DNA from: Gamsiella multidivaricata
Lineage: Eukaryota > Mortierellomycota > Mortierellomycetes > Mortierellales > Mortierellaceae
Assembly: GCF_025024155.1 (NCBI RefSeq)
Contig: NW_026251851.1
Span: forward strand, 1 to 49,884
Reading direction: 5' to 3'
DNA: 49,884 nt
Below the pieces are notes generated by a model. That model was given only the letters and a program-made list of their open reading frames with translations, ran no database searches and was not told the DNA's origin. Made by a program: the position numbers and the translations under genes. Numbering within the stretch: the first letter of the stretch is position 1; every line of letters begins with the position of its first letter. Shown piece by piece: positions 1,175 to 49,358 of this stretch.

Positions 1175-2191
1175 TTAATCGATATGGCCTCCTTTATTTG
1201 CGTGAAGCTTCTTCATGCGCTCGGGCATGCTCTCATATAGCTCGTGAAGGAATTCGATATTTACTGTTGTCAATATATCCTGAACACGCTCCCAGAGGTC
1301 GTCCAAAGAGTTTGGTGCCTCTGGATACTGATCAAGTCGGTACTTGAGGTGCGACCATAGATGCTCGGTCGGGTTGAGGTCCGGAGAATTCGCAGGCCAT
1401 TCCATGACTGCGATCTTGGATTTCCTAAGGAAGTCTTCGACTATGCCTGCTGTATGCACTTTGGCATTGTCCTGCTGAAAAATGAATTTTGCTGGATCCA
1501 TACCAAACCAATCCCGAGATGCGCAAAGATAGTCCTTCAGTACATCGAGGTAGGCTTGTGCATCCATACTTCCTGGGATCCAGCAGGCATCGCCCAAGCC
1601 ATAAAATGTTATGCAACCCCAGACCATAATTTGGCCCCCTCCGCCCTGCTTTGTTTTCTGCACTTGGTGAGGTTGGATATCCTTCCTGTTGGGCTTCTTG
1701 TAATAGAATGTCCTGCCGAAGGACCCAATCCTGCTGATTATAGTTTCGTCCGAGAACATCACATTCTTCCAGTCGTCCACGGTCCATTTCAAGTGCGCCT
1801 TAGCAAATTCGTAGCGTGCTCTGATTTGATCCGGTGTCAGATCACGCTTCCTAGGCTGGACGTATGCTTTTAAGCCCTCCTGTTTAAGGTAGTTCTGGAC
1901 ACTGTCTACATGAACCTGCACTCCTTGCACCGATTGGATAAGTCGCTGGCCGTCGCGGAGGGTTACGGCTTTTCCTGTGACGAAATGACGAGCAAGTAAG
2001 GTCTTGGTCTTCTTCGAAACCTTCGAAGGACGCCCTATTTTAGGGGACGGAACGTTCTCCTTGTCCCTTTGACGAATCTTGGAAACGGAGAAAGTAGAGC
2101 TATGCAAGGATCTTGAGACCTCGCGGACAGATTTTCCTTGCCGAAGTTGGATAATCGCATCGCGTACGGTTTGTTCTCGCAGCCGCTTCAT
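1175..2191 (-). CDS. Tc1/mariner-family DDE transposase
   Basis: This 338-residue protein has the usual Tc1-family length. It has an N-terminal helix-turn-helix region (about 5-110), including a GRPS hook near 53-56 typical of the paired-type DNA-binding domain, and a C-terminal catalytic domain. The acidic triad is visible: D148 in MFSDET, D241 in QQDNAKVH and E276 in PDLNPTEHLW, giving DD34E spacing. The GGGGQIMVWGC block precedes the second Asp. The frame is uninterrupted from ATG to stop and lies wholly between the inverted repeats, so the enzyme may be functional. It would excise and reinsert the element at TA sites. Confidence 0.96.
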   Translation of the reverse strand: MKRLREQTVRDAIIQLRQGKSVREVSRSLHSSTFSVSKIRQRDKENVPSPKIGRPSKVSKKTKTLLARHFVTGKAVTLRDGQRLIQSVQGVQVHVDSVQNYLKQEGLKAYVQPRKRDLTPDQIRARYEFAKAHLKWTVDDWKNVMFSDETIISRIGSFGRTFYYKKPNRKDIQPHQVQKTKQGGGGQIMVWGCITFYGLGDACWIPGSMDAQAYLDVLKDYLCASRDWFGMDPAKFIFQQDNAKVHTAGIVEDFLRKSKIAVMEWPANSPDLNPTEHLWSHLKYRLDQYPEAPNSLDDLWERVQDILTTVNIEFLHELYESMPERMKKLHANKGGHID

Positions 2192-2492
2192 GTTTGATGT
2201 AAACTTGGGATGAATGTGGCGTAGGATGGGAGTAGTGGAAAACTGTGCAGTTGTATTGTTCTAGTTGCGAGTGAGGATGCAGACCGTAAGGGAAGAGCAC
2301 AATTTATAGGATTTTTTAAAAAGTGTTAGAGTGCACCTCATGACTTTCGAGATCCTTCGTTCCTCAGCTGAAGGTCATTCAAGCCTGGAACATTCTAGAA
2401 AACTCCTTGTAAGTTACGATATTGTCCACCAAACATCTCGGTCCTTGGTAATAGCGTAATAGGGAGATAAAGGAGTATAAGTCCAAAATAGC

Positions 2493-3584: not shown

Positions 3585-5715
3585 TTAATTTCGACCGCGC
3601 TTCCGCGTACGAGTAATAGGCTTCTCCTTATTACGTCTATCGTCATTAATATCTTCGACACTCATGTGGCCGCGTTTGCGTGCTGAGGTCCTTTCTGGAG
3701 CAGCATAGGATGTATCGTTCATTGGCCTTTGCTTTAATCGAGCTTTGCCTTTACGTTGCAATGATGAAGTCTCTTGCTCGTCGCACTTAGGGACGTGGTT
3801 CTTCAACGTTTGACGAGACTGCGGCCGAGATTGTGTCCCTGGTTGATCGCGAGTCTTCCAGTAGTCTGATAGACACTTTCTCTCAATAAAGTTCTCTTGG
3901 GGCTCCCAAGTCTTCTCTGAGTATCCTTTCCAACTTACGAAGTATTCTACATCGCCCCCAGGTAACTTCCGGTGGTCCAGAATTTTTTCTACTTCGTAAG
4001 TCACTGTGTCTTCATAGTCGTCGAGCACCAACTTGAGCTGCGATGGCGCGTAATTGCGTCCAAGGAGGGCTCCTGTGCCGTCCTTCAGCTCATATGCTCC
4101 TCCAGTCGTGCGACGGACAACAGTGTAAGGGCCTTCATACCTAGGCGAAAGTTTATCTCCCTTAATGGGATCCAGAGACATGACTTTGGCGCCGTCAGGG
4201 AACTCATTGTGCAGAACCGTTCTATTGAACCGCTCAATCATCCGCTGTTGAGTGGCACGCGCCTTAGCACTAATAGCTGGAAAGACGGTCTTGGTCATAT
4301 ATTCAAGCCGCTTTAAGAGTTCTTCATGGGATAATAATTCATCTTTGTCGTTGGAGAAATTATGAAATCCGTTGAATCGTCGCGCAAAAAATAGCGAAAA
4401 TGGGGAGGAGTTGTGAAATGCCACAATCCTAGTGTTTATAGCCATTTGTGCCATCGGAACATGCCTCGCCGATGATGCCTTTTGGTCTTTGATTTCTTTC
4501 CGGATGATATTGACGGCCGTCTTAACATGATTCTCTGCAACTCCGTTGCCTCGAGGATGATAGGGTGTTACCAGACGATGTTGCACTCCCATCTCTGAAA
4601 TCATGACCCTCATAACCTCGTTAACGAATTCTTTGCCATTGTCAGATTGGAGAATGCGCGGGAAACCGATAGTGGTGAATATCCGAAACAGTACTTTTGT
4701 GATTGTAGGCGCTTCCTTGTTTGGTATGGGCTCAAGGAACACGAACCGTGTACAGACGTCCACCAGAACGAGAAGAAACCGGTGACCTTTGTCATCCTCA
4801 GGGAATGGTCCGGCTAAATCGATAGCCATCTGTTCTCCCGGGAGCTGAGCATGAATGGCAGACAAAGGATGATATCCCTTACGCGCAATATTGACACGTT
4901 GACATTCTTGGCAACGCTGAACGTATTCCAGACAGTCCTTGGCCATAATGGGCCACGTCTTGTTCAACGAGTGAATGTGATTCACCATGGCATTGGTCCC
5001 GAAGTGGCCAAGCGCATGGGTGCTGGCGAGCAATATTCTTCTCTTACTCATCGCGACGGTCTCACGCAAAGTATTTGCATCCTGGATAAGGTGGATATAA
5101 CCATAAACCTTTGTAGGCAGAGTACCGGACGATTTACTGGACCATAATTCCATAGGAAACTGTCGAGATAATGCGTCGGGTAGTACATTGAGGACACTGG
5201 GTCGATAGACTACCTTGAAGGTATAGTCCAGAATGGTTTCCTGCCATCCAGTGAGCATAGAATTCATCTCCTTCTGTGAATGCATGAAGGTGAGAGCGCG
5301 ATGGTCCGTATAGAGTGTGAAATGTCTTCCCCAGAGGTAGTAGTGCAGCTTCTTGAGCGCAAAAACAATTCCGAGCAATTCTTTCTGTGTAGCAGAATAC
5401 TTTCGTTCACGTTCCTGCAAGGATCGAGTGACAAAAGAAATATATTTGATATTGCTGGGTTCTAACTCGCCTCCTGGTAACTAATATAACACCGCTCCTA
5501 TGCCAATGTTCGACGCATCTGTGGCCACGTAAAAGGGCATGCTGAAGTCTGGAAAGGATAGTACCGGGGCCTGTACGAGAACATTTTTCAGCGCGTTGAA
5601 GCATCGTAATTGGATATCGTTTAGTACGAACGATCCAACTCCATTGCGTAAAGCATCCAATGGTGCACCAACAGTACTATTCGGGGACATATATTCCATA
5701 GAGTTTTACGAAGGC
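3585..5715 (-). pseudogene. gypsy Pol fragment: RNase H, integrase, chromodomain
   Basis: The frame begins inside the reverse transcriptase tail (STVGAPLDALRN). RNase H follows, with acidic residues in ATDASNIGIGAVL, ATQKELLGIVFAL and LYTDHRALTF. A histidine/cysteine zinc finger comes next (HALGHFG ... CLEYVQRCQEC). The integrase core shows Asp in MAIDLAGPF, Asp in QSDNGKEF and Glu in GVAENHVKT. A chromodomain follows (YEVEKILDHRKL ... FVSWKGYSEKTWEP), then a basic tail. One in-frame TAG at 5481-5483 breaks it where related proteins read Gln (AVLY-stop-LPGGE). From 5420 down to the stop at 3585 the frame is open for 611 codons. Chromodomains of this class steer integration toward marked histones. 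Confidence 0.9.
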
Positions 5716-8158: not shown

Positions 8159-9033
8159 CAGGCGATATTGTGGTCATCGGCATTGGCCCGGGTGAGGTTT
8201 ACACAATGACAGCGACAAGAATCGACCCCGCCTTACCTACGAATAGAGAGTCTTTACGAATCCGCAGGGTATTCCTCTACAGGCCTTACATGCTCTTCAA
8301 GCGTCTCCTAGAAAAGCAGAAGGCCGCGGCACGCATTGATGTTCTTGAGGCAAGACTGCCCTCATTTACCGTGGAGAAGATCGAGGAATATCTGGCGTAT
8401 CTGGAGACGCCTGGTACGGACGGCGCCACCGCGCCCACCACGAGAGTCCGCCTTTTTAACTTTTACAACAGTCAGTGGATGCTAAGCAAGCGCTGGGATC
8501 TTCAAAAGGCTCAACAGGCAACGTATGACTACGCAGTTGCAGCCCTACTTGACCTTGCCGTCAGCAAGGACTTTGTTGGTCAGCCGCTGAGCTCGCAGGA
8601 TAGTGTAAAAGTGGTGTTTGCGGTAGGATTGGGCTCTTTTGATTCGCAAACTGGCCTACCAAGCAAGCATAGCGCACTTGAGAAGAAATTTGTCGGCAAG
8701 GTAAGAAAAAGAAAAAAAAAAAAAAGTGTGGCATACCATCCCTCATCCGCGCTGCAACTTTTTCTCGTCTTTTTGTTTGTTCTTTGACGCTGCTGATAGG
8801 CAAAGGCTATGGAACACACTGTGGTCGGGGTGCGCGAGTATTACACCAGTGCTCGGTGCCCTCGTGACCAATCTATGGCGTTCTTGGAGTCCGACAAGAG
8901 GCGGTCAAAGTACTGCCGAAGCTGTCAAATGTACTTTGATCGCAGTATTGTCGGCTCTGGGAACATTGCCACCGTGTGTCTGTCGCAAATCCAGAACCAG
9001 TGCCGGCCTGCCAAGTTCATGCCATCAACATAA
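8159..9033 (+). pseudogene. Fanzor (TnpB-like) C-terminal half, inactivated
   Basis: Two exons (8159-8700 and 8800-9033; GT-AG intron 8701-8799, phase 0) give a continuous frame of about 290 codons. It carries the RuvC-like nuclease part of a Fanzor protein: a first strand reading DIVVIGIGPGEVYTMTAT, a central helical part, VVFAVGLGSFDSQTG, VVGVREYYTSARCP, a zinc-ribbon half KYCRSCQMYF, and DRSIVGSGNIA. In the family, the first motif normally has Asp where this copy has Gly (GIGPG). The third motif normally has Asp where this copy has Ser (DRS), and the ribbon lacks one Cys (CPRD). The EYYTS glutamate is kept. The N-terminal half is missing, replaced by the solo LTR at 7767-8158, and there is no proper start codon. 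Family members are RNA-guided DNA nucleases often carried by eukaryotic transposons. Confidence 0.72.
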
Positions 9034-9210
9034 TCATAGGGGGTCGGAACCCTCTTTCAAAATTTGTAATTCAACATACAAAAATAGCGTGCATGAACAA
9101 CCCATTCTAAATTCTTTTTTTTTTTTTGTTTTAAACCAGGAACTCTATGGTAGTCTAGGTGGCGAATAATACGTATGACATGTAGTTGGAGTCTATGTTA
9201 GGTATATAAA
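9034..9210. other. Short noncoding stretch with T-tract
   Basis: No gene is seen. It holds the 3' flank of the Fanzor fragment and a run of 14 T at about 9115-9128, possibly the tail of another minus-strand retroposed sequence. Confidence 0.4.
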
Positions 9211-14022: not shown

Positions 14023-16600
14023 ATGTCGTGGTACGCGACAGTACGCCTTTCTTCGTAAGAAGGGTTACCAATCCTCTGTACTTTACCCATCAGCCGCGTC
14101 AACAACCTCGTGCACCGCCACCAGAAGAGTCGACCTTCTCTCTCGCTTTTCAGTCATCAGGAATGCTTATACGCGAAACTCCATCGAGATGGCCCATACG
14201 ATCCTGGAGCTGGATGTCATGCGGTTCGGGACCAAGGAAAACATCATTATCTACGTTGACGGAGTCCAGGCAGAGGAGAAGGAGTTCACTGCTCAGATCC
14301 GCCAAGAAGCTCGGGAGAAGACCACTAAGCGATGCAAAAAAAGTGTGGATGAACTACAAAGATGGATCGATAACAACCTCAAGGTCTGTAAACAACACTT
14401 TGCCGATGCCTAGACCAGCCTTTCGTCCTCCTTCTATTGGACCCTGCCCATCCGTGATGCATTTGTCAAGTATATGCAGGACGAGGGGTGGAATATTCAG
14501 CGATGCGAGACGGAAGCTGATGTTGCGGTCGCTCGGGATTGCAGATCTGGCGATATTGTCGTGTCTGCGGACAGCGATATGCTCGCGTACCCATCCTGTC
14601 AACCCTGTGGCGCCCGATTTCAAAGAATTTAATTCTGATCTACAAGATATCGAATATCTGTGAGGTTCTCAGTGTGTCCAGGATCCAACTCACGGTCCTC
14701 GCTGTTGCCTCCAACAACGACTATGAAAAAATATCTACTCTCTTGGACTGGCGACCAACTTTTCGATTATCAAGACGATCAAGAAACAAGGTAAATATCA
14801 ATGATCAAAGTATTACGGAGCGAGGCTGAACCATTTAACTAATATATCTATTTTTTTTACCTATTTTTGCAGATGTGCGACAGACGGTGAATGCATATTT
14901 GGAAGACTCCAAGGTCGTTTTAAAGAACACAGACAACAGAACACTTGAACTTGCACTCAGAGTCTTTGTTAATCTCCAACAGACGCCTGCCAGCGATCCT
15001 CGCCCTTTGTCCAGCGTCTCGTCCTACAGTGAGCTTTACAAACGACTCAAGGATCTTTGTGCCATATACCAGGAGAACAAGGATTTTCGCGCACAACTGC
15101 AACCAAGGTATGCTATATTTCTGCTCAATATCGCACGGCATTTAGGACTTGGCGTCGGCAATCGTCTCATAGCTCATCTTACTTATTGTTTTGATGGCAA
15201 TAATACTTGCAAGGATCAGATCATCCGCCTCCGCTCCTTGCAGTCTTTCATTCGATATAGGACAGTTGAGTCTCCAGCTATGTTGAAGCCTGATCTTGGG
15301 TCGCGCTTACCGCAGTCGCCATCACCGCAACCATCCTCAGCACAACCACAACAACCTGCACCGAATCTGCAGAATAATCCTCCGACCACATTACCGTCTC
15401 AGGAGTCAAACGGTCACCCGCCGCTTCCAAGGATGCAACTCCCACGAAATCGCCATCGTTACTCATTCAAGACGAGGACAGGGACAACAAACCCCCATCT
15501 CCCAGTCAAGATGAAGCTCTACAAGTTCAAGTCTTACAAGGAGTCTGAAGCAAAAGACGAGCTTGAGCCCTCCAGCGACGAGCCCAAGCCCAAGCCCAAA
15601 CTCAAAACGTTGTCCGATTCGAATGCAGCTACCCGCAAGCTCGCTATTACACGGTTATTGCAATACCAGCGCCCAACATCTACTTTGAACGCCGGTACTC
15701 TATCCGCTAACCTCAGACGAGCTCTGACAAACGATGGTACCGTTCAACAGGAAGTTCCTTTGTATCCGAAACGCTGTGCGCGAGGCTGCCAGGATCAAAC
15801 GACAAGGTCAACGAGTAATTGGAAAGTTTGTCGAGCATGTGAACAAGCATAGACCGGGTCTCAACGATCGTCGATTCATGAATTGTCTTTGTCCTCGAGT
15901 CTCCATGAAGGACGCGAAAAAGCTGGATGATGGTTGTGCCCCAGAGGACGACGATGAGGATGGTAGTGACATGGACCAGAAATCCAAGGATGGCAAAGGC
16001 TCTGAGCAGTTCCTGTTCCTCCAGAGCTTTCTGGTATACCTCTACTCTGGGAACTACTCACGAAAAAGTGGTACCGGTCAGAAGATCAACGATTTCATTG
16101 ATCGCCTCAAGGATCTCGGACTGTACGCTCCACCACGTCCTCAGGCCGCTCTCAACGAGACAACTCCCTTCTCACCAACAGAGTTACTCCTATCGGTGGC
16201 GTTGCAGCTCAAGGTCGAACTCAAAAAAATGTACCGTAATGGGACCTGTGAGCTGCATAATAAGGTATGGGTTGAGGGCACTACTGGTCATCTTAATTTA
16301 GCGCGTCTATTCGAATTTGAACTGAGGCGGATTCGATTCGATTCGATTCGATTAATTTGAATAGTTGCGCTATTCGTTACTGTCATTACTGTCACTATCC
16401 ATTGACGTTCCCTTGCGATATAGAAGATCATCGTCAAACAAGCCTTTCGGCTCCTCGAAGAAAACAAATTCCGTTGGCTACCCGCACAAAAGCTGAATAT
16501 ATTCAAATCCGCAGTGCACGAGATGTCCAAAATGCTGCCATCGAGGACGTTTTCCTACAGAAATGTGCATTATCTGCGATTTCTGTTCACCACAGCGAGG
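14023..16600 (+). pseudogene. FEN1/XPG-like nuclease joined to Fanzor-like region, decayed
   Basis: The first part resembles a FEN1/XPG nuclease: YAFLRKKGYQSSVLYPSAAS at the N-terminus, then FGTKENIIIYVDGVQAEEKE (the FDG-P type motif), then CETEADVAVARDCRSGDIVV with SADSDMLAY (the two acidic pairs of the XPG-I motif, 14507-14521 and 14570-14578), then LTVLAVASNNDYEK and IYSLGLATNFSIIKTI (helix-turn-helix with Asp). A GT-AG intron lies at 14791-14872. A proline/glutamine-rich linker follows, then IRNAVREAARIKRQGQRVIG, FLVYLYSGNYSRKSGTG and ELLLSVALQLKVELKKMYRN, which recall the N-terminal region of fungal Fanzor proteins. The RuvC part is absent; the gene is lost after about 16600, where Tc1 sequence begins. 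Breaks are a start-region shift, TAG at 14411-14413, 1-base losses near 14600 and 14732, and a shift near 15766. The nuclease call is firm; the Fanzor link is inference. Confidence 0.62.
16330..16353. repeat. GATTC microsatellite
   Basis: Nearly five tandem GATTC units lie in a probable intron (about 16266-16426) of the decayed nuclease gene. There is no spacer structure, so this is not a CRISPR array. Confidence 0.9.
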
Positions 16601-16639
16601 TTTCGTCGACTGTCATGCTGCTAAGGAGTATAACAAGGA

Positions 16640-16985
16640 GAACCAGGGCCCAGTCTCAGTAAATTTTATTAGGCGAGCACTCCATGATATAGGAATGAGA
16701 GCAAAAAAGTTCATCAAGAAGCCCATGCTCAAACCTCATCACAAGAAAGCACATTTAGAATTCATCAAGAAGCACCAACGTTTCACAGGAGATGACTGAG
16801 AACGCGCAATTTGGCCCGACAGGTCCAACATCAACAGAATATCTTCCGATGGGCTGAAGTACGCACGTATGAACTCATGAAAAGATCCTAAGGTCAAGGC
16901 GAGCGATATCGGACCAAGGCTAATCAGGTCTACGGTTAAGCATGGAGGCGGGGCATCATGGTTTGGAGCTGCATGACATGGTATG
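16640..16985 (+). pseudogene. Tc1-like transposase fragment
   Basis: The plus strand encodes FIRRALHDIGMRAKKFIKKP and HHKKAHLEFIKKHQRFTGDD, then after a stop a decayed catalytic block (NINRISSDGLKY) and KHGGGGIMVWSCMTW. These correspond to the inter-domain region and first Asp block of a Tc1 transposase. The subfamily differs from that at 923-2522. The expected Ser-Asp-Glu is mutated (WPDRSN), and both ends are missing. Confidence 0.75.
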
Positions 16986-17054: not shown

Positions 17055-19617
17055 TTTTTTTTTTATTTTTTTATTAACATAAATTCCTATGAGCACGAGA
17101 CGCATGGTCTGCAAAGGCCTTGAAGCCATAGATGCCTTCCATGCACGACAGAGCCGCATCTCCTACCAACCATGTTGGCTTGAGGCGTCAAATTCATAAC
17201 CCATGTCGCATAGCTAGCCTAACCTAACTCCTGCGTGATCTGTTGCGCGATACACGTCTCCTAATCCAGATCCAATGTTAATAAAGTTGTTTTTAAACCG
17301 AATAAACCCTCCATTATGTCCAACTTCCCCCGCCCCAAACAATGCTGCGGCACCCTATAATCCGCGGTCCGTCTACCTTCCTGGATCTCCGCTGCAAGTA
17401 ACCGTCTCCCTTTCAAATCAGAGAAATCACCAACACTACGTTGGTGTCCCCGATCACCGTTGCGTCCTCCGGCGCGTTTGCTCATGGTGATTCCAACTGA
17501 CTTTTCCCAGGCGACAGTGCCCTCGCATCGTTTGTTCCATATCTTGGTCCTGCCAAATTCTTCGATCCTGCTCACGAACTTTGTCACCATGATCGTCGCA
17601 ATCCACTTGGTGGTGGTAAATAGCTGCTTCCAGGTCTCAATGAGTCTCATTGGCACCAAACCTCGGTATAACTCCTTGACCTCCCAATCTGCCTCACTCT
17701 CCGGCTCCTCTCCTTCCGCAACCCGATATGCCCCTCGTCTTTCCGCCGTCCCCTGAATCCACTACATTGACTCCCAGATAGCCTTCGTTCCTGTTGCCGA
17801 GAAGTTGGGACAAGTCGCAGTGAAGGGCTTGTCCTTCCGTTCGGCCTCCTCTCTCTCCTGTTCCCATTTTCGCACTGCCTGTCTCCATGCGCGATATCCA
17901 TTCGACTTCACCTCCTCCACCGCATCCCTCCACTCTTGCTGCTGGTCGCATAAGGTAGCTGAACAACGCCAAAGATGATCGTTCGTCTCTGGTTCCCTCT
18001 CACACCTACGACATATGTCCGTTTGGTAGGTATCTGGATGTCGTTTCTTCATCGCCTGCAATGTCGGCAAATCTCCATGCAACTTCTTGATCCTGTGCGA
18101 ACGTAAACGACAGTCTTCCAGACTAGTGTATAAGCGCTTTGGCGGGTTGTTATCGTGTAGGATCCGCAGCGTGGGCGCCCATGCTACCGACCGCCAATCC
18201 TTGATGTAGGTCCTCGTTCGATGCTGCAATGTCCGCTGATAATGGTGCCGTACCGCGGACTGCAGCTTCAGTATCCTTCTCAAGTCCAGGTCTGCACTGT
18301 GTGTTGCAAACTGTGCGTAGCATTTCAAATCACAGTGTTGCGTTGCGTCTAGCCTCCATAGTCCTGTATCGATCCCATGTGCTGCCTTGGCAACAGTGTC
18401 CGCAGCCTCGTTGCCACGGTGTCCAGCATGTCCTCGTACCCAATGCACAGATATACCTTGCCCTTGTTGCAAGAAGGCATAATGTACCATCGCCCACCAC
18501 TGTGCATCTGCAGATCTCAAACGCTGCCTTGCTGTTGCTGAATCCCGCTGCTGCACCAACTCCTTGAAATTATTTACAACTGTGAGATTGTCGATGTAGA
18601 TGTCGACGTTCTCTTCCCTTGGGCTGATAAGAATTGTTGCCAAGAGCCCACACATCTCTGCGATTGTTGACGATGCGTATCCACCGACCCGTCCACTGAA
18701 CGCCGTTGTGTAGGGACCACCATCCACGGAAACGACAACTCCAAATGCTGCACTGACCTGCTCCGTGCCGTTGTGAATCATTGACCCATCCGAGCAGAAG
18801 TGAAGCCTTTGATGCGTTTGCAAACGTCCTCTAGCTGCCCGAATTTGCTGGATTGTTGGTACCTGGAACGCCAACCCAAATAAATCTCGCTCAATTTCAT
18901 CTGATACTGCCGGCAATGGTTGGCGAACAGGTGTCGTCATATTGTCCACCGCCTTGTGCGCATCCTCATGCAAGTGGTTTCTACACGCCTCTGAATCCCC
19001 ATTCATATATCTACGATATAAATGGCGTCGTCTTCGTCGTTCTTCTCTGTATCGAGCTCGCCTCTCGATGTCCCGCAGGCGCCGTTGCTCCTCCTGCTGT
19101 CGCTTCTCCTGCTGTCGCTCCTCTTTCAGTTGCCGCTGTCGGTCACGCTCTTGCTGTTCTGTCCGCCGCCGCTCCTCTTCCAATTGTCGCTGTTGTTCCC
19201 GCTTTTGCTGTTCTGCCTGCTGCATTTGTTGCCGAAGGTGCCTCTGTACTGCTTTCAGTTGTGCCCGCTTCTGTTTAATCCATTGTTGATCGAGTCTGTG
19301 CTCTTCTCTGTCGAAAGCACGGTCCAAGTCGTCTTGATCACGCAGTCGATTGCCTGTCATTTTTACCATAGCACGTCGAATGTATTCCTGCTTCCTTACG
19401 CTACGCTGGCTGAGCGTCTCTTGGACTCGCGGTGTGAAGAGCGCAGTGTCCGGATCCAAGTTGAGAATTTCCTGAGACGACAGCAAACCGTTGTTCTGCT
19501 CCCCATTGTCTTCCTCCAGTGGTGGTTGATCCATCGGTTGCTCTGCATTGTTATCTCCTCTGCCTTCAGACCTTTCCTCCTCACTCGCAGCTTCGTCATA
19601 CACGCTGTCATCGTCGG
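17055..19617 (-). mobile_element. LINE-type element copy A, 5'-truncated
   Basis: It is nearly identical to 46999-49587 in reverse orientation and ends in an A-rich tail (T-run 17055-17077 on the plus strand). The minus-strand frame holds an acidic segment, an Arg/Gln/Glu-rich coiled coil, RNase H (HFCSDGSMIHNG ... GHAGHRGNEAAD) and a zinc knuckle (CRRCEREPETNDHLWRC). A TAG at 17762-17764 replaces the Gln codon present in the intact copy (ESMQ versus ESM-stop). Its 5' end joins the 202-bp repeat at 19617/19618. The open frame therefore starts artificially inside that repeat, at 19693. No target duplication is visible. Confidence 0.88.
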
Positions 19618-19819
19618 TGTTCCGTCCAGACCCCAAATTGGGACTGTACTGGGAGTGAACCTTAATATTTAGGCCACTTCCATTTTTATTCATGAGACTA
19701 TTAAGCTATCTAATACTCCAAGCCCCAGGTCGGGGCTATAAAAACCCCTACCGGGAGCATAATAAATAACAACGCTCTTTGGTCTCCTTGACTCACACTG
19801 AAATACATAAAACATCACA
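19618..19819 (-). repeat. 202-bp LTR-like repeat, copy 2
   Basis: This is the reverse complement of 6150-6351 with few differences. It lies exactly between two head-to-head LINE fragments (copy A leftward, copy B rightward) and has no matching flanks. A TATA box and AATAAA are present in the same positions as in copy 1. Confidence 0.65.
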
Positions 19820-22015
19820 GAAATCGCACGAGGATTTGCGAGTGTTGGTCTTTTTTCAACAGATCAGATCATGGATGAAGGATTGGAGGTGCGGTCGTGG
19901 TCCTTCCTTCGCAAGCAGCAACGAGTCAAAGGGCCATCCAGACAATGGTTCCATGATTTCCAGTCCTGGATCACAGGCGACGATCACCGGCGTAGCTTCA
20001 TCAGCCAGTGGATTGCAGCAGAACGATGCAGGATAGGCGAATGCGCACACGACTGCCCTCGCTGTGTTGACCAAGTTGTACCCCCGCCACAACAAGAAAT
20101 CCTGCGAGAGGTGATAGGGCCCCTCACGGAGACCGAGGACAGACAAGCGAGGCGTACTGCTGAGGATGCTTTGCATACGTACAATATCGCGGTCCGACTC
20201 AAGGAATATAGACAGCGACAGCGACGTGAAAAATATAATGGCATGGATGAGGACCAGAAGGTACATGAAATGGAAAAAGCAGCACTCAAGGACATGGATT
20301 CACAGCCAACTACCATTCAGGATGCGGCAGCGCTCGCGTCCTTGGCTCCGCTAGCACAAATGATCGATTTCCCGTGGGTTGATATTGACCAGGAGACATG
20401 GCAAACGATCCGTGAGACTCGATGGAGGATCCCGCCTGGGCTGGAGGCAATTGTCCTTTATTCGGATGGATCAGTGAAGAACGCTGGCTCGGACACAGTC
20501 AGCCAATCGTTCGGCAGTGTCTATAGATGCGTTGACGGCTCATTTCAGACGGCTATCTGTGGTACAACGACGGATTACGCATCATCCACCAAAGCAGAAC
20601 TGGTGAGTCTGCTCGCGACAATTCTGTGCTGTCCCCGGGATCGCAACGCCATTATTCATATCGACAATAGAGCAGTGGTCCAACAGTTTGCGGCGTTAGT
20701 TAAGAATCGACATACAGCTACTCCACGACGACGGTTGAGAGCAGCATATGCCAACTGGTGGGCCGTGATCTACGAGGCGTACGTGCAGCAGGACAGCAAA
20801 GTAGATGTTCAGTGGGTTAAAGGACACAATGGCGATACTGGAAATGAGGCCGCTGACGAATTGGCGGACAAGACACACGACAGCGGGCGACGGCCTTGGC
20901 AACTGAACACACAGTATTTCACGAGCATGAAGACACATACGACCTTCTGTGGTCAGCCAGCGGAGGACGACATTCGCCAATTGATCAAGCATCAGTCTGC
21001 AGCCAGAGACCATCATGCATGGACTTGTCAACGATGAATGAAACAATTTATTCAGCAGTGGGAAGAAGTGGAGTGGCGATCCAGCCTTGCTATAATACAT
21101 GAGAAAAATCCGCCAGGGGGTTTTTTCACCAGCCTTGCGGATTGCAACCATCGGTCCCACAGGATCAAGAAAATCCATGGTATGCTGCCAACCATGCAGT
21201 ACATGCACAGGTGGAAGCCGAATCTGTATACCACAGACAGATGCCAAGTGTGCCTTACCATGGTGGAGGATGCCCAGCACCTCTGGGTCTGCAGAGTCAC
21301 ACAGAACAGACGACAGGAAGAATGGAGAAAGACACTTGATGGGGTTCTAAGTCTTGGACGCACCTTGGTAGATAAGGCGAGGAAAAAGTGGTTGTGCGAC
21401 ATGGAGGAGGCAATCAAGGATGGTCGACAATTCACACGCACCGAACCGAGTTTTACCCCGTGCGAGTTAGACACCCTTTGGTGGAGTCTGCGTGATATCC
21501 GGGGAGTGGAAACGATGGTGGATACGCGGGATGATGACTGGATAAAGCTGCTGGAGGAGCGGCGAGACAGGGACAATGGTGGCGAGGACAGAGAGAATGT
21601 CCACGAGGAAGAAGGAGAAGGAGTGGGCAGTCAAGAAAACGTACAGCAGGCAGCACCGCCTACCAGGCTATGGACAACGACAGACATATATCACGGGCTC
21701 GTACCAAAGTTCCTGACAACAGATTGGGCGCTACTCTTGAAGACGTCGAAGAGCATCGCGGCTTACCTGGTTGGACGTTTTGTAGAACGAGTTGAGGCTT
21801 TTGGCCGAGAGGAGTTATGGAAGGAGCGATGTAGTGCCACAGTGGCATGGGAAAAGTCCGAGGGCATATGCACGAGGATGAAGAAAGCCGGGGTCCAGGT
21901 AGGAGGTGAGACCCAGGGCTTTGTGAGACAACAGCTCCAAGAGGAGGTTACGACAGCGGCGAGGAGGAGAGCAGACAGCCGCTTGGTGGACCATCTTCAG
22001 GTAAGGTGGTGTTGA
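19820..22015 (+). pseudogene. LINE-type element copy B, divergent relative
   Basis: The open frame encodes the same layout as copy A with clearly diverged sequence. It has a charged N-terminal segment, RNase H (IVLYSDGSVKNAG, SSTKAELVSLLATI, IIHIDNRAVV, WVKGHNGDTGNEAADELAD), a NHRSHRIKKIHGMLPTMQ block, a Cys/His knuckle (CQVCLTMVEDAQHLWVC) and a C-terminal region WALLLKTSKSIAAYLVGRF. An in-frame TGA at 21035-21037 interrupts it; removing that one stop gives about 730 codons. No reverse transcriptase precedes it, because the 5' side is cut at the 202-bp repeat. Confidence 0.82.
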
Positions 22016-46770: not shown

Positions 46771-46789
46771 AGTAGTGAGTCCGAGGAAT
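46771..46789 (+). repeat. Target-site duplication, left
   Basis: The 19-bp AGTAGTGAGTCCGAGGAAT is repeated exactly at 49587-49605, flanking the LINE insertion. Confidence 0.95.
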
Positions 46790-49358
46790 GCAGGCGATCG
46801 TGCACGGGGGCGATTATGTCCAGGAAGCTACTGCACAATGGATTGATGAGCTACTGGAGGAATTACCATCCGATCTGGAAGAGCCACAGGCGCCAAATGG
46901 CTTGGACGAAGATGAGCAGCCCGCCGCTGTGCATCCAGCACCAGTTGACAATTTAGACAGGGCGGTATTACGTCTACCTGTAGGGAATACTGCGACTGCC
47001 GACGATGACAGCGTGCCCGACGAAGCTGCGAGTGAGGAGGAAAGGTCCGAAGGCGGAGGAGATAACAATGCAGAACAACCGATGGATCAACCACCACTGG
47101 AGGAAGACAATGGAGAGCAGAACAACGGTTTGCTGTCGTCTCAGGACATTCTCAACTTGGATCCGGAAACTGCGCTCTTCACACCGCGAGTCCAAGAGAC
47201 GCTCAGCCAGCGTAGCGTAAGGAAGCAGGAATACATTCGACGTGCTATGGTAAAAATGACAGGCAATCGACTGCGTGATCAAGACGACTTGGACCGTGCT
47301 TTCGACAGAGAAGAGCACAGACTCGATCAACAATGGATTAAACAGAAGCGGGCACAACTGAAAGTAGTACAGAGGCACCTTCGGCAACAAATGCAGCAGG
47401 CAGAACAGCAAACACGGGAACAACAGCGACAATTGGAAGAGGAGCGGCGGCGGGCAGAACAGCAAGAGAGTGACCGACAGCGGCAGCTGGAAGAGGAGCG
47501 GCAGCAGGAGAAGCAACAGCAGGAGGAGCAACGACGCCTGCGGGACATCGAGAGACGGGCTCGATACAGAGAAGAACGACGAAGACGACGCCATTTATAT
47601 CGTAGATATATGAATGTGGATGCAGAGGCGTGTATAGACCACTTGCATGAGGATGCGCACAAGGCGGTGGACAATATGACGACACCTGTTCGCCAACCAT
47701 TGCCGGCAGTATCAGATGAAATTGAGCGAGATTTACTGGGATTGGCGCTCCAGGTACCAACAATCCAGCAAATTCGGACAGCTAGGAGACGTTTGCAAAC
47801 ACATCGAAGGCTTCACTTCTGCTCGGATGGGTCAGTGATTCACAACGGCACAGAGCAGGTCAGTGCAGCATTCGGAGTTGTCGTTTCTGTGGATGGTGGT
47901 CCCTACACAACGGCGTTCAGTGGACGGGTCGGGGGATACGCGTCGTCAACAATTGCAGAGATGTGTGGGCTCTTGGCAACAATTCTTATCAGCCCAAGGG
48001 AAGAGAACGTCGACATCTACATCGACAATCTCACAGTCGTCAACAATTTCAAGGAGTTGGTGCAGCAGCGGGATTCAGCAACAGCAAGGCAGCGTTTGAG
48101 ATCTGCAGATGCACAGTGGTGGGCGATGGTGCATTATGCCTTCTTGCAACAAGGACAAGGTATATCTGTGCATTGGGTACGAGGACATGCTGGACACCGT
48201 GGCAACGAGGCTGCAGACACTGTTGCCAAGGCAGCACATGGGATCGATACAGGACTATGGAGGCTAGACGCAACGCAGCACCATGATTTGAAATGCCACG
48301 CACAGTTTGCAACACACAGTGCAGACCTGGACTTGAGGAGGATACTGAAGTTGCAGTCCGCGGTACGGCACCATTATCAGTGGACATTGCAGCATCGAAC
48401 GAGGACCTACATCAAGGATTGGCGGTCGGTAGCATGGGCGCCCACGCTACGGATCTTACACGATAACAACCCACCAAAGCGCTTATACACCAGCCTGGAA
48501 GACTGTCGTTTACGTTCGCACAGGATCAAGAAGCTGCATGGAGATTTGCCGACATTGCAGGCGATGAAGAAACGACATCCAGATACCTACCAAACGGACA
48601 TATGTCGTAGGTGTGAGAGGGAACCAGAGACGAACGATCATCTTTGGCGTTGTTCAGCTACCTTGTGCGACCAGCGACAAGAGTGGAGGGACGCGGTGGA
48701 GGAAGTGGAGTTGAATGGATATCGTGCATGGAGACAGGCAGTGCGAAAATGGGAACAGGAGAGAGAGGAGGCCGAACGGAAGGACAAGCCCTTCACTGCG
48801 ACTTGTCCCAACTTCTCGGCAACAGGAACGAAGGCTATCTGGGAGTCAATGCAGTGGATTCAGGGGACGGCGGAAAGGCGAGGGACATATCGGGTTGCGG
48901 AAGAAGAGGAGCCGGAGAGTGAGGCAGATTGGGAGGTCAAGGACTTATACCGAGGTTTGGTGCCAACGGGACTCATTGAGACCTGGAAGCAGCTATTTAC
49001 CACCACCAAGTGGATTGCGACGATCATGGTGACAAAGTTCGTGAGCAGGATCGAAGAGTTTGGCAGGACCAAGATATGGAACAAACGATGCGAGGACACT
49101 GTCGCCTGGGAAAAGTCAGTTGGAATCACCTTCATGAGCAAACGCGCCGGAGGACGCAACGGTGATCGGGGACACCAACGTAGTGTTGGTGATTTCTCTG
49201 ATTTGAAAGGGAGACGGTTACTTGCAACGGAGATCCAGGAAGGTAGACGGACCGCGGATTATAGGGTGCTACAGCATTGCTTGGGGCGAGGGAAGTTGGA
49301 CATAATGGAGGGGTTATTCGGTTTAAAAACAACTTTATTAACATTGGATCTGGATTAG
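46788..49358 (+). CDS. LINE-derived protein: coiled coil, RNase H, zinc knuckle
   Basis: The 856-codon frame is open. The N-terminal 150 residues are acidic (DELLEELPSDLEEP). Residues about 170-275 form an Arg/Gln/Glu-rich coiled coil. RNase H spans about 340-485 with all four acidic positions: Asp347 (FCSDGS), Glu391 (TIAEMCGLL), Asp413 (IYIDNL) and Asp477 (GHAGHRGNEAAD). LRSHRIKKLHGDLPTLQAMK precedes a CCHC-like knuckle (CRRCEREPETNDHLWRC). The rest is unassigned (ETWKQLFTTTKWIATIMVTK). The ATG straddles the insertion junction: A and T come from the target-site duplication and G from the element. The natural frame therefore probably began upstream and the start is accidental. In a full element this would be the C-terminal part of ORF2. 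Confidence 0.85.
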   Translation: MQAIVHGGDYVQEATAQWIDELLEELPSDLEEPQAPNGLDEDEQPAAVHPAPVDNLDRAVLRLPVGNTATADDDSVPDEAASEEERSEGGGDNNAEQPMDQPPLEEDNGEQNNGLLSSQDILNLDPETALFTPRVQETLSQRSVRKQEYIRRAMVKMTGNRLRDQDDLDRAFDREEHRLDQQWIKQKRAQLKVVQRHLRQQMQQAEQQTREQQRQLEEERRRAEQQESDRQRQLEEERQQEKQQQEEQRRLRDIERRARYREERRRRRHLYRRYMNVDAEACIDHLHEDAHKAVDNMTTPVRQPLPAVSDEIERDLLGLALQVPTIQQIRTARRRLQTHRRLHFCSDGSVIHNGTEQVSAAFGVVVSVDGGPYTTAFSGRVGGYASSTIAEMCGLLATILISPREENVDIYIDNLTVVNNFKELVQQRDSATARQRLRSADAQWWAMVHYAFLQQGQGISVHWVRGHAGHRGNEAADTVAKAAHGIDTGLWRLDATQHHDLKCHAQFATHSADLDLRRILKLQSAVRHHYQWTLQHRTRTYIKDWRSVAWAPTLRILHDNNPPKRLYTSLEDCRLRSHRIKKLHGDLPTLQAMKKRHPDTYQTDICRRCEREPETNDHLWRCSATLCDQRQEWRDAVEEVELNGYRAWRQAVRKWEQEREEAERKDKPFTATCPNFSATGTKAIWESMQWIQGTAERRGTYRVAEEEEPESEADWEVKDLYRGLVPTGLIETWKQLFTTTKWIATIMVTKFVSRIEEFGRTKIWNKRCEDTVAWEKSVGITFMSKRAGGRNGDRGHQRSVGDFSDLKGRRLLATEIQEGRRTADYRVLQHCLGRGKLDIMEGLFGLKTTLLTLDLD

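What the first reader, a model, noticed from the sequence alone, without database searches (positions are those of the whole stretch)
14023..16600. FEN1/XPG-type nuclease apparently fused to a Fanzor-like protein
The sequence shows a flap-nuclease domain with its key motifs (YVDG; ETEAD; SADSD; NNDY plus helix-turn-helix). It is followed, through a Pro/Gln linker and without an intergenic break, by a segment (IRNAVREAARIKRQGQRVIG ... LKVELKKMYRN) that I associate with the N-terminal half of fungal Fanzor proteins. Known Fanzors are RNA-guided RuvC nucleases; a built-in 5'-flap/structure-specific nuclease would be a two-nuclease design able to process its own cleavage products or transposition intermediates. 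The copy here is broken by at least one stop and several frameshifts and lacks RuvC, so the fusion is inferred from order and from family memory.
Basis: partly seen in the sequence, partly recalled or inferred. Interest (0 to 1): 0.88.

Follow-up and report, generated by a model that had tools for sequence, protein, structure and literature searches.

The report
Fanzor nuclease fused to flap nuclease
Mortierella-type fungi carry a repeated, likely jumping, gene family whose annotated proteins join a flap-nuclease domain to a Fanzor-type nuclease domain (both folds predicted by modelling), a two-cutter design that would likely cut DNA at an RNA-guided site and then trim the broken ends; the copy in this window is only a decayed, truncated fragment of it.

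The parts
14041..14790 (+). FEN1/XPG-type nuclease domain (exon 1 equivalent), broken: YVDG, ETEAD, SADSD, NNDY present; one in-frame TAG and a frame change
14873..15107 (+). second exon equivalent: conserved extension of the FEN1 part (DVRQTVNAYLEDSK...RVFVNLQQTP)
   Evidence: boundaries approximate, read by eye
15217..15650 (+). Pro/Gln-rich linker, likely disordered
   Evidence: pLDDT under 50 for P0020 338-428 and 432-504; boundaries approximate
15650..16294 (+). N-terminal half of the Fanzor part (IRNAVREAARIKRQGQRVIG ... LKVELKKMYRN), with one frame change at about 15,757; start approximate
   Evidence: corresponds to the beginning of P0018 418-1105, which aligns with PpFz and SpuFz
16297..16297 (+). 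right end of similarity to the other copies, just after the Fanzor N-terminal exon; RuvC and zinc ribbon missing here
8159..9115 (+). C-terminal piece (RuvC part and TNB zinc ribbon at 8800-8967) of a second FEN1-Fanzor subfamily; 92% identical to L067 3583-4543, a locus with a FEN1-like part upstream

Best explanation
Window 14,041-16,297 is a truncated, decayed copy of a repeated gene, likely carried by a transposon, whose better-preserved relatives are annotated as one protein with an N-terminal FEN1/Exo1-type nuclease (fold predicted) and a C-terminal Fanzor-type RuvC nuclease (fold predicted), which would likely cut DNA at an RNA-guided site and then trim or resect the 5' ends of the break. 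Shown: the order FEN1 - linker - Fanzor N-terminus - RuvC - zinc ribbon in annotated proteins, FEN1 upstream of the zinc ribbon in 58 loci of this genome, both predicted folds in one model, and acidic motifs of both active sites kept in most members. Inferred: that the fused transcript is made, that an omega-RNA guides the Fanzor half, that both nucleases are active, and that the divergent neighbour gene is a MULE-type transposase that moves the element. Proposed mechanism: the transposase moves the element; the Fanzor half, loaded with an RNA from the element's end, cuts the empty donor site or the uninserted allele; the tethered FEN1/Exo1-like half removes 5' flaps or resects 5' ends at that break, biasing repair towards copying from the homologous chromosome or sister that still carries the element rather than end joining. 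The window copy itself, broken and without RuvC, would do none of this.
Against: No transcript or protein data: in the subfamily-A copies I read an intron separates the FEN1 exon from the next, so the fusion rests on gene models and conserved frames. 51 of 109 TNB loci have no FEN1 hit upstream. Every copy whose FEN1 and RuvC parts I could both read in this genome (L048-L053, L055, L056, L063, L067) shows at least one stop or frame break. The MULE label is weak: one of six pieces of the neighbour gene matched MULE, and below the cut-off (20.5 vs 27.6 bits); the genome-wide MULE search found 8 places, none beside a FEN1-Fanzor pair. No omega-RNA was found: folding of the last 130 bases of eight copies gave z from -0.8 to -2.6. 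No clean terminal inverted repeats or target duplication were recovered. The resection step has no direct evidence.
Confidence: 0.5

Rival explanations
1. Fusion real, but the FEN1/Exo1-like half works on the RNA or on transposition intermediates (maturing the guide RNA, or trimming branched ends made by a transposase), not on the Fanzor cut.
For: The superfamily includes an RNA 5' nuclease (XRN1 9e70 appears at 6.9e-5); a transposase-like gene sits beside a number of copies.
Against: The top fold matches are the DNA nucleases Exo1 and FEN1. Solved Fanzors have no room for such a domain before their aligned part (SpuFz aligned from residue 18, PpFz from 103), so it is not needed for guide making in them.
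Confidence: 0.25
2. Two neighbouring genes (a FEN1-like gene and a Fanzor gene) of one element, merged by gene predictors.
Against: Merged models in seven genera; the linker exons are conserved and in frame, and no conserved Met lies between the parts in the alignment; a model from this very genome (P0039) joins FEN1, linker and the start of the Fanzor part; a second diverged subfamily has the same order in single annotated proteins.
Confidence: 0.12
3. The FEN1-like half is catalytically dead and serves as a DNA-end-binding module.
For: Some members lack an acid (P0013 GGSD, P0017 SNSD).
Against: All four motif patterns (loosely written) are found in 19 of the 25 proteins that have a FEN1 part (the 25 were themselves picked by having at least three of the four), and synonymous change exceeds amino-acid change in this half.
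Confidence: 0.1

Closest known systems
Fanzor1 (SpuFz1, PpFz, GtFz; PMC10432273, PMC11423790; Bao and Jurka 2013, PMC3627910)
   Same: Predicted fold over 418-1105 of P0018, RuvC-I Asp, Glu before the zinc ribbon, C4 zinc ribbon, final Asp; probable residence in a DNA transposon, MuDr-type ones being among those described
   Different: More than 400 extra N-terminal residues with a FEN1/Exo1-type domain and linker; ten of the 12 fused models have 1,208-1,358 aa (P0018 with 1,180 starts late, P0019 with 1,011 is partial) against 600-700 aa for most Fz1 (passage seen in PMC11423790)
FEN1 / Exo1 / XPG (Rad2 family)
   Different: Part of a longer, multi-copy protein rather than a stand-alone repair gene. 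The genome's four strong XPG_I matches are other loci, with no TNB match within 6 kb
MULE / Mutator-like transposons
   Same: Divergent neighbour gene with a SWIM finger above cut-off and a sub-threshold MULE match beside one copy
   Different: Would carry a second, FEN1-Fanzor gene; terminal repeats not resolved, and most pieces of the neighbour gene are not recognised as MULE by Pfam

Membership tests
Fanzor | D-X(125-275)-[TS][TS]-X-X-C4 zinc finger-X(5-50)-RD (Bao and Jurka 2013) | tested here: met
   Strict pattern in 7 of 12 fused subfamily-A proteins; of the other five, three have a zinc-finger Cys replaced or displaced (P0002, P0009, P0017), one reads KD (P0010), one has PS for TS (P0019); subfamily-B P0044 did not fit the pattern as written. 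Not testable in the window copy, which lacks this part
Fanzor | Fanzor fold | tested here: met
Fanzor | omega-RNA guided DNA cleavage | not testable with these tools
   No RNA-seq; folding of 3' ends inconclusive
FEN1/XPG nuclease | Rad2-family fold | tested here: met
   Pfam XPG_I: five places of this family above cut-off at 25.5-26.6 bits in the genome search; in single proteins at or below 24.4 bits, under the 24.9 cut-off, and no match in P0002, P0017 and P0018
FEN1/XPG nuclease | Conserved acidic active-site motifs | tested here: met
   All four loose patterns (YxDG, xEAD, SxxSD, ND) in 19 of 25 proteins with a FEN1 part; P0019, P0020, P0028, P0037, P0040, P0041 lack one; P0013 and P0017 have lost an Asp of DSD. 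Assignment to metal ligands is by the Rad2 alignment and recall
FEN1/XPG nuclease | 5'-flap or 5'-exonuclease activity | not testable with these tools
   none
MULE transposon | MULE DDE transposase with SWIM finger | tested here: inconclusive
   SWIM above cut-off in L063; MULE 20.5 bits, below cut-off 27.6, in one of six pieces; the 8 MULE places of the genome-wide search are not beside FEN1-Fanzor pairs; neighbour gene adjacent in 16 of 25
MULE transposon | Terminal inverted repeats and 9-bp target duplication | tested here: inconclusive
   Shared sharp right ends found; left ends and duplication not resolved

The most novel reading that the evidence does not exclude
A eukaryotic transposon encodes a single-chain RNA-guided cut-and-resect enzyme: the Fanzor half makes a programmed break and the tethered FEN1/Exo1 half immediately resects it, forcing homologous copying. 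To my knowledge it would be the first natural single-chain RNA-guided nuclease with a built-in flap/5'-end nuclease.
Probability: 0.3. Interest if true: 0.95.

Novelty: new variant of a known kind. Interest (0 to 1): 0.82.

Why it matters
Fanzors are the eukaryotic counterparts of TnpB and Cas12. A natural fusion with a 5'-flap/5'-exonuclease-type domain, found in seven genera of one fungal family and in two diverged subfamilies, suggests that what happens to the break matters to the element, and makes the open question of what Fanzor does for its element directly testable: mutate each nuclease and read the repair outcome. It would also offer a natural template for coupling guided cutting to end resection in genome editing.

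Tried and rejected
C32 was fetched because a RuvC hit lay in a 1,808-aa open frame; this was a run of N and was dropped. Pfam on the window ORFs alone gave only weak hits, best Pox_G5 7e-4 below cut-off. Terminal repeats: a short imperfect match near one left end (L034) was seen by eye, but no general repeat or target duplication. omega-RNA folding: not significant. Scans of viral contigs and of bacterial/archaeal genomes with A1: 11 and 35 pattern matches, no relative. P0044 against the PDB by sequence: one unrelated hit at E 1.9. Pfam did not recognise the N-terminal part of the neighbour gene, and the genome-wide MULE search did not find that gene. Apophysomyces P0027 is the only named hit outside Mortierellaceae (families of genera other than Gamsiella are recalled); it sits on a 2-kb contig and may be contamination; P0034 comes from a jgi source without a name. 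In one search the five FEN1 rows with L063 were probably read in a wrong frame (start not in step with the open frame) and are dropped; the RuvC pair L049-L050 (dS 0.04) is left out of the ranges. Literature: searches for Fanzor with XPG, FEN1, Mucoromycota and Mortierella, and for TnpB with flap endonuclease, fusion and transposon found no such fusion; a review (PMC12719977) came up twice, seen in the listing only; searches for Fanzor with fused, TnpB and eukaryotic transposable elements, domain architecture, and Mutator were seen as listings. In PMC10711439, PMC10432273 and PMC11423790 only passages were seen; in PMC3627910 passages and section 12. One Fanzor paper asked for by DOI is not held, so absence from print is not proven. 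After checking, the MULE label was lowered to tentative and the confidence from 0.55 to 0.5.

Full report
What is there. The window's FEN1-like motifs and the Fanzor-like segment are real and lie in one ordered stretch, 14,041-16,297. The copy is decayed: one in-frame TAG, at least two frame changes, and similarity to its relatives stops at both ends. It contains the FEN1 part, a second conserved exon, a Pro/Gln-rich linker and the N-terminal half of the Fanzor part; the RuvC and zinc-ribbon half is absent.

Which genome. Two proteins found by the database search, P0035 and P0039, are annotated for Gamsiella multidivaricata on contigs whose lengths (736,129 and 253,859) equal those of C126 and C134 of this assembly. 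The window is therefore from that fungus, Mortierellaceae.

Family in this genome. The DNA query found the window copy, eight others at 93-94% over 1.8-2.2 kb, and ten weaker places at 65-67%. A protein query with the Fanzor N-terminal segment found 65 places. Better-preserved copies continue past the window's truncation into a RuvC part (LTLDAGQAFVVGAY) and a TnpB-type zinc ribbon with the HRD motif. The genome holds 109 places that match the Cas12f1-like TNB family. Of these, 58 have a FEN1 hit upstream on the same strand within 6 kb; 56 of the 58 distances are under 4 kb and the median is about 3.0 kb. Five TNB loci have a FEN1 hit on the opposite strand within 6 kb and three have one in the wrong order. 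51 of 109 are unpaired: some lie at contig ends, others may be truncated or have a FEN1 part too distant to detect, and some may be ordinary Fanzors; I did not sort them. 48 of 106 FEN1 clusters are likewise unpaired, the window copy among them.

Homologues elsewhere. The first database search (read-through of one genomic copy) returned 25 proteins; a second with FEN1-less rows brought the total to 42 ids. Both scored only the roughly 8,000 candidates that share most words, so the lists are not complete. By genus name all named sources are Mortierellaceae except P0027 (Apophysomyces, 2-kb contig); P0034 has no name. By motif, 25 of 42 have the FEN1 part, 16 of 42 the zinc ribbon and 12 of 42 both: P0001, P0002, P0006-P0010, P0013, P0017-P0019 and P0028, from Entomortierella, Gryganskiella, Haplosporangium, Linnemannia, Podila, Mortierella and Dissophora. 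P0008 carries both XPG_I and TNB in its precomputed Pfam list, although rescored here XPG_I gives 23.5 bits against a cut-off of 24.9.

Active sites. The RuvC-I Asp is present in 12 of 12 fused subfamily-A proteins; the Glu just before the zinc ribbon in 11 of 12 (Lys in P0013); the final Asp in 12 of 12; the strict Bao-Jurka pattern in 7 of 12 (an earlier version of the script, took a FEN1-region motif for RuvC-I in P0006 and P0013). FEN1 motifs: all four loose patterns in 19 of 25, with P0013 and P0017 having lost an Asp. Between subfamilies, amino-acid-changing differences are well below synonymous ones in both halves. Synonymous sites are near saturation, so omega could be computed for few pairs: 0.22 and 0.39 for FEN1, 0.26 for RuvC; the close RuvC pair L049-L050 (dS 0.04) gave 0.62.

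A second subfamily. L067 (C166) has MGIRGLYSTLKKRGL and TEAD/SADSD/KNDY in FEN1-like frames and a RuvC frame with GIDPGEV downstream. A search with its frames found four annotated proteins; P0044, P0045 and P0046 carry FEN1-like and RuvC-like segments in one protein by eye, though Pfam does not score a FEN1 part in them. The window itself holds a C-terminal piece of this subfamily at 8,159-9,115, 92% identical to L067. Whether the two pieces in the window are historically linked is unknown.

Transposon context. A divergently transcribed gene beside several copies has a SWIM finger above cut-off in L063, a MULE match below cut-off in one of six pieces tested and an N-terminal part without a convincing Pfam match. 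A genome-wide MULE search found eight places, none beside a FEN1-Fanzor pair. So the gene is transposase-like and MULE-type only tentatively; DDE-like motifs in other pieces were seen by eye. 16 of 25 hits of its N-terminal part lie divergently within 1.5 kb of a FEN1-Fanzor hit (C137 counted by its Fanzor hit). Three recent copies share a sharp right end, and five copies of the window's family share another; left ends and target duplications were not resolved.

Mechanism. Shown: architecture in annotated proteins and loci, folds by prediction, conserved motifs, a dispersed repeat family with shared right ends. Inferred: a transposase moves the element, the Fanzor half is guided by an RNA from the element, and the FEN1/Exo1-like half processes the ends of the Fanzor cut so that repair copies the element back. 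Exo1 being among the top fold matches makes resection plausible, but FEN1 matches equally well, and flap removal, guide-RNA processing or handling of transposition intermediates remain open.

Literature. Solved Fanzors begin their alignment near their own N-termini (GtFz residue 2, SpuFz 18, PpFz 103) and so have no room for such a domain there. Within the open-access library I found no paper that holds both Fanzor and XPG, or Fanzor and Mortierella; the one that holds Fanzor and FEN1 is a genome-engineering review, seen in the listing only. One Fanzor paper asked for by DOI is not held.

Noticed in passing
window 8159-9115 (+): RuvC and TNB part of a second FEN1-Fanzor subfamily, 92% identical to L067 on C166; TNB match at 8800-8967.
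   Followed up: yes
window 16497-16796 (+): Fragment that resembles a Tc1/mariner transposase by eye; no second DNA copy in the genome.
   Followed up: partly
window 1175-2260 (-): Uninterrupted 361-aa Tc1/mariner-type transposase frame (DDE_3, HTH_Tnp_Tc3_2).
   Followed up: no
window 3585-5480 (-): LTR-retrotransposon pol part with RNase H, integrase and chromodomain.
   Followed up: no
window 17762-19705 (-), 19811-21037 (+), 46779-49358 (+): Three long frames with an RNase H domain, perhaps non-LTR element remains; the first and third look near-identical in translation by eye and share a Gln/Glu-rich stretch.
   Followed up: no
genome G000: 109 TNB places in 37.5 Mb, an unusually heavy Fanzor load by my recollection.
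   Followed up: partly
L048, L059-L062 right ends: A GGCG...CGCC hairpin with TGACGTAG just inside the right end of the window's family; possible guide-RNA scaffold or terminal repeat, not significant by folding alone.
   Followed up: partly
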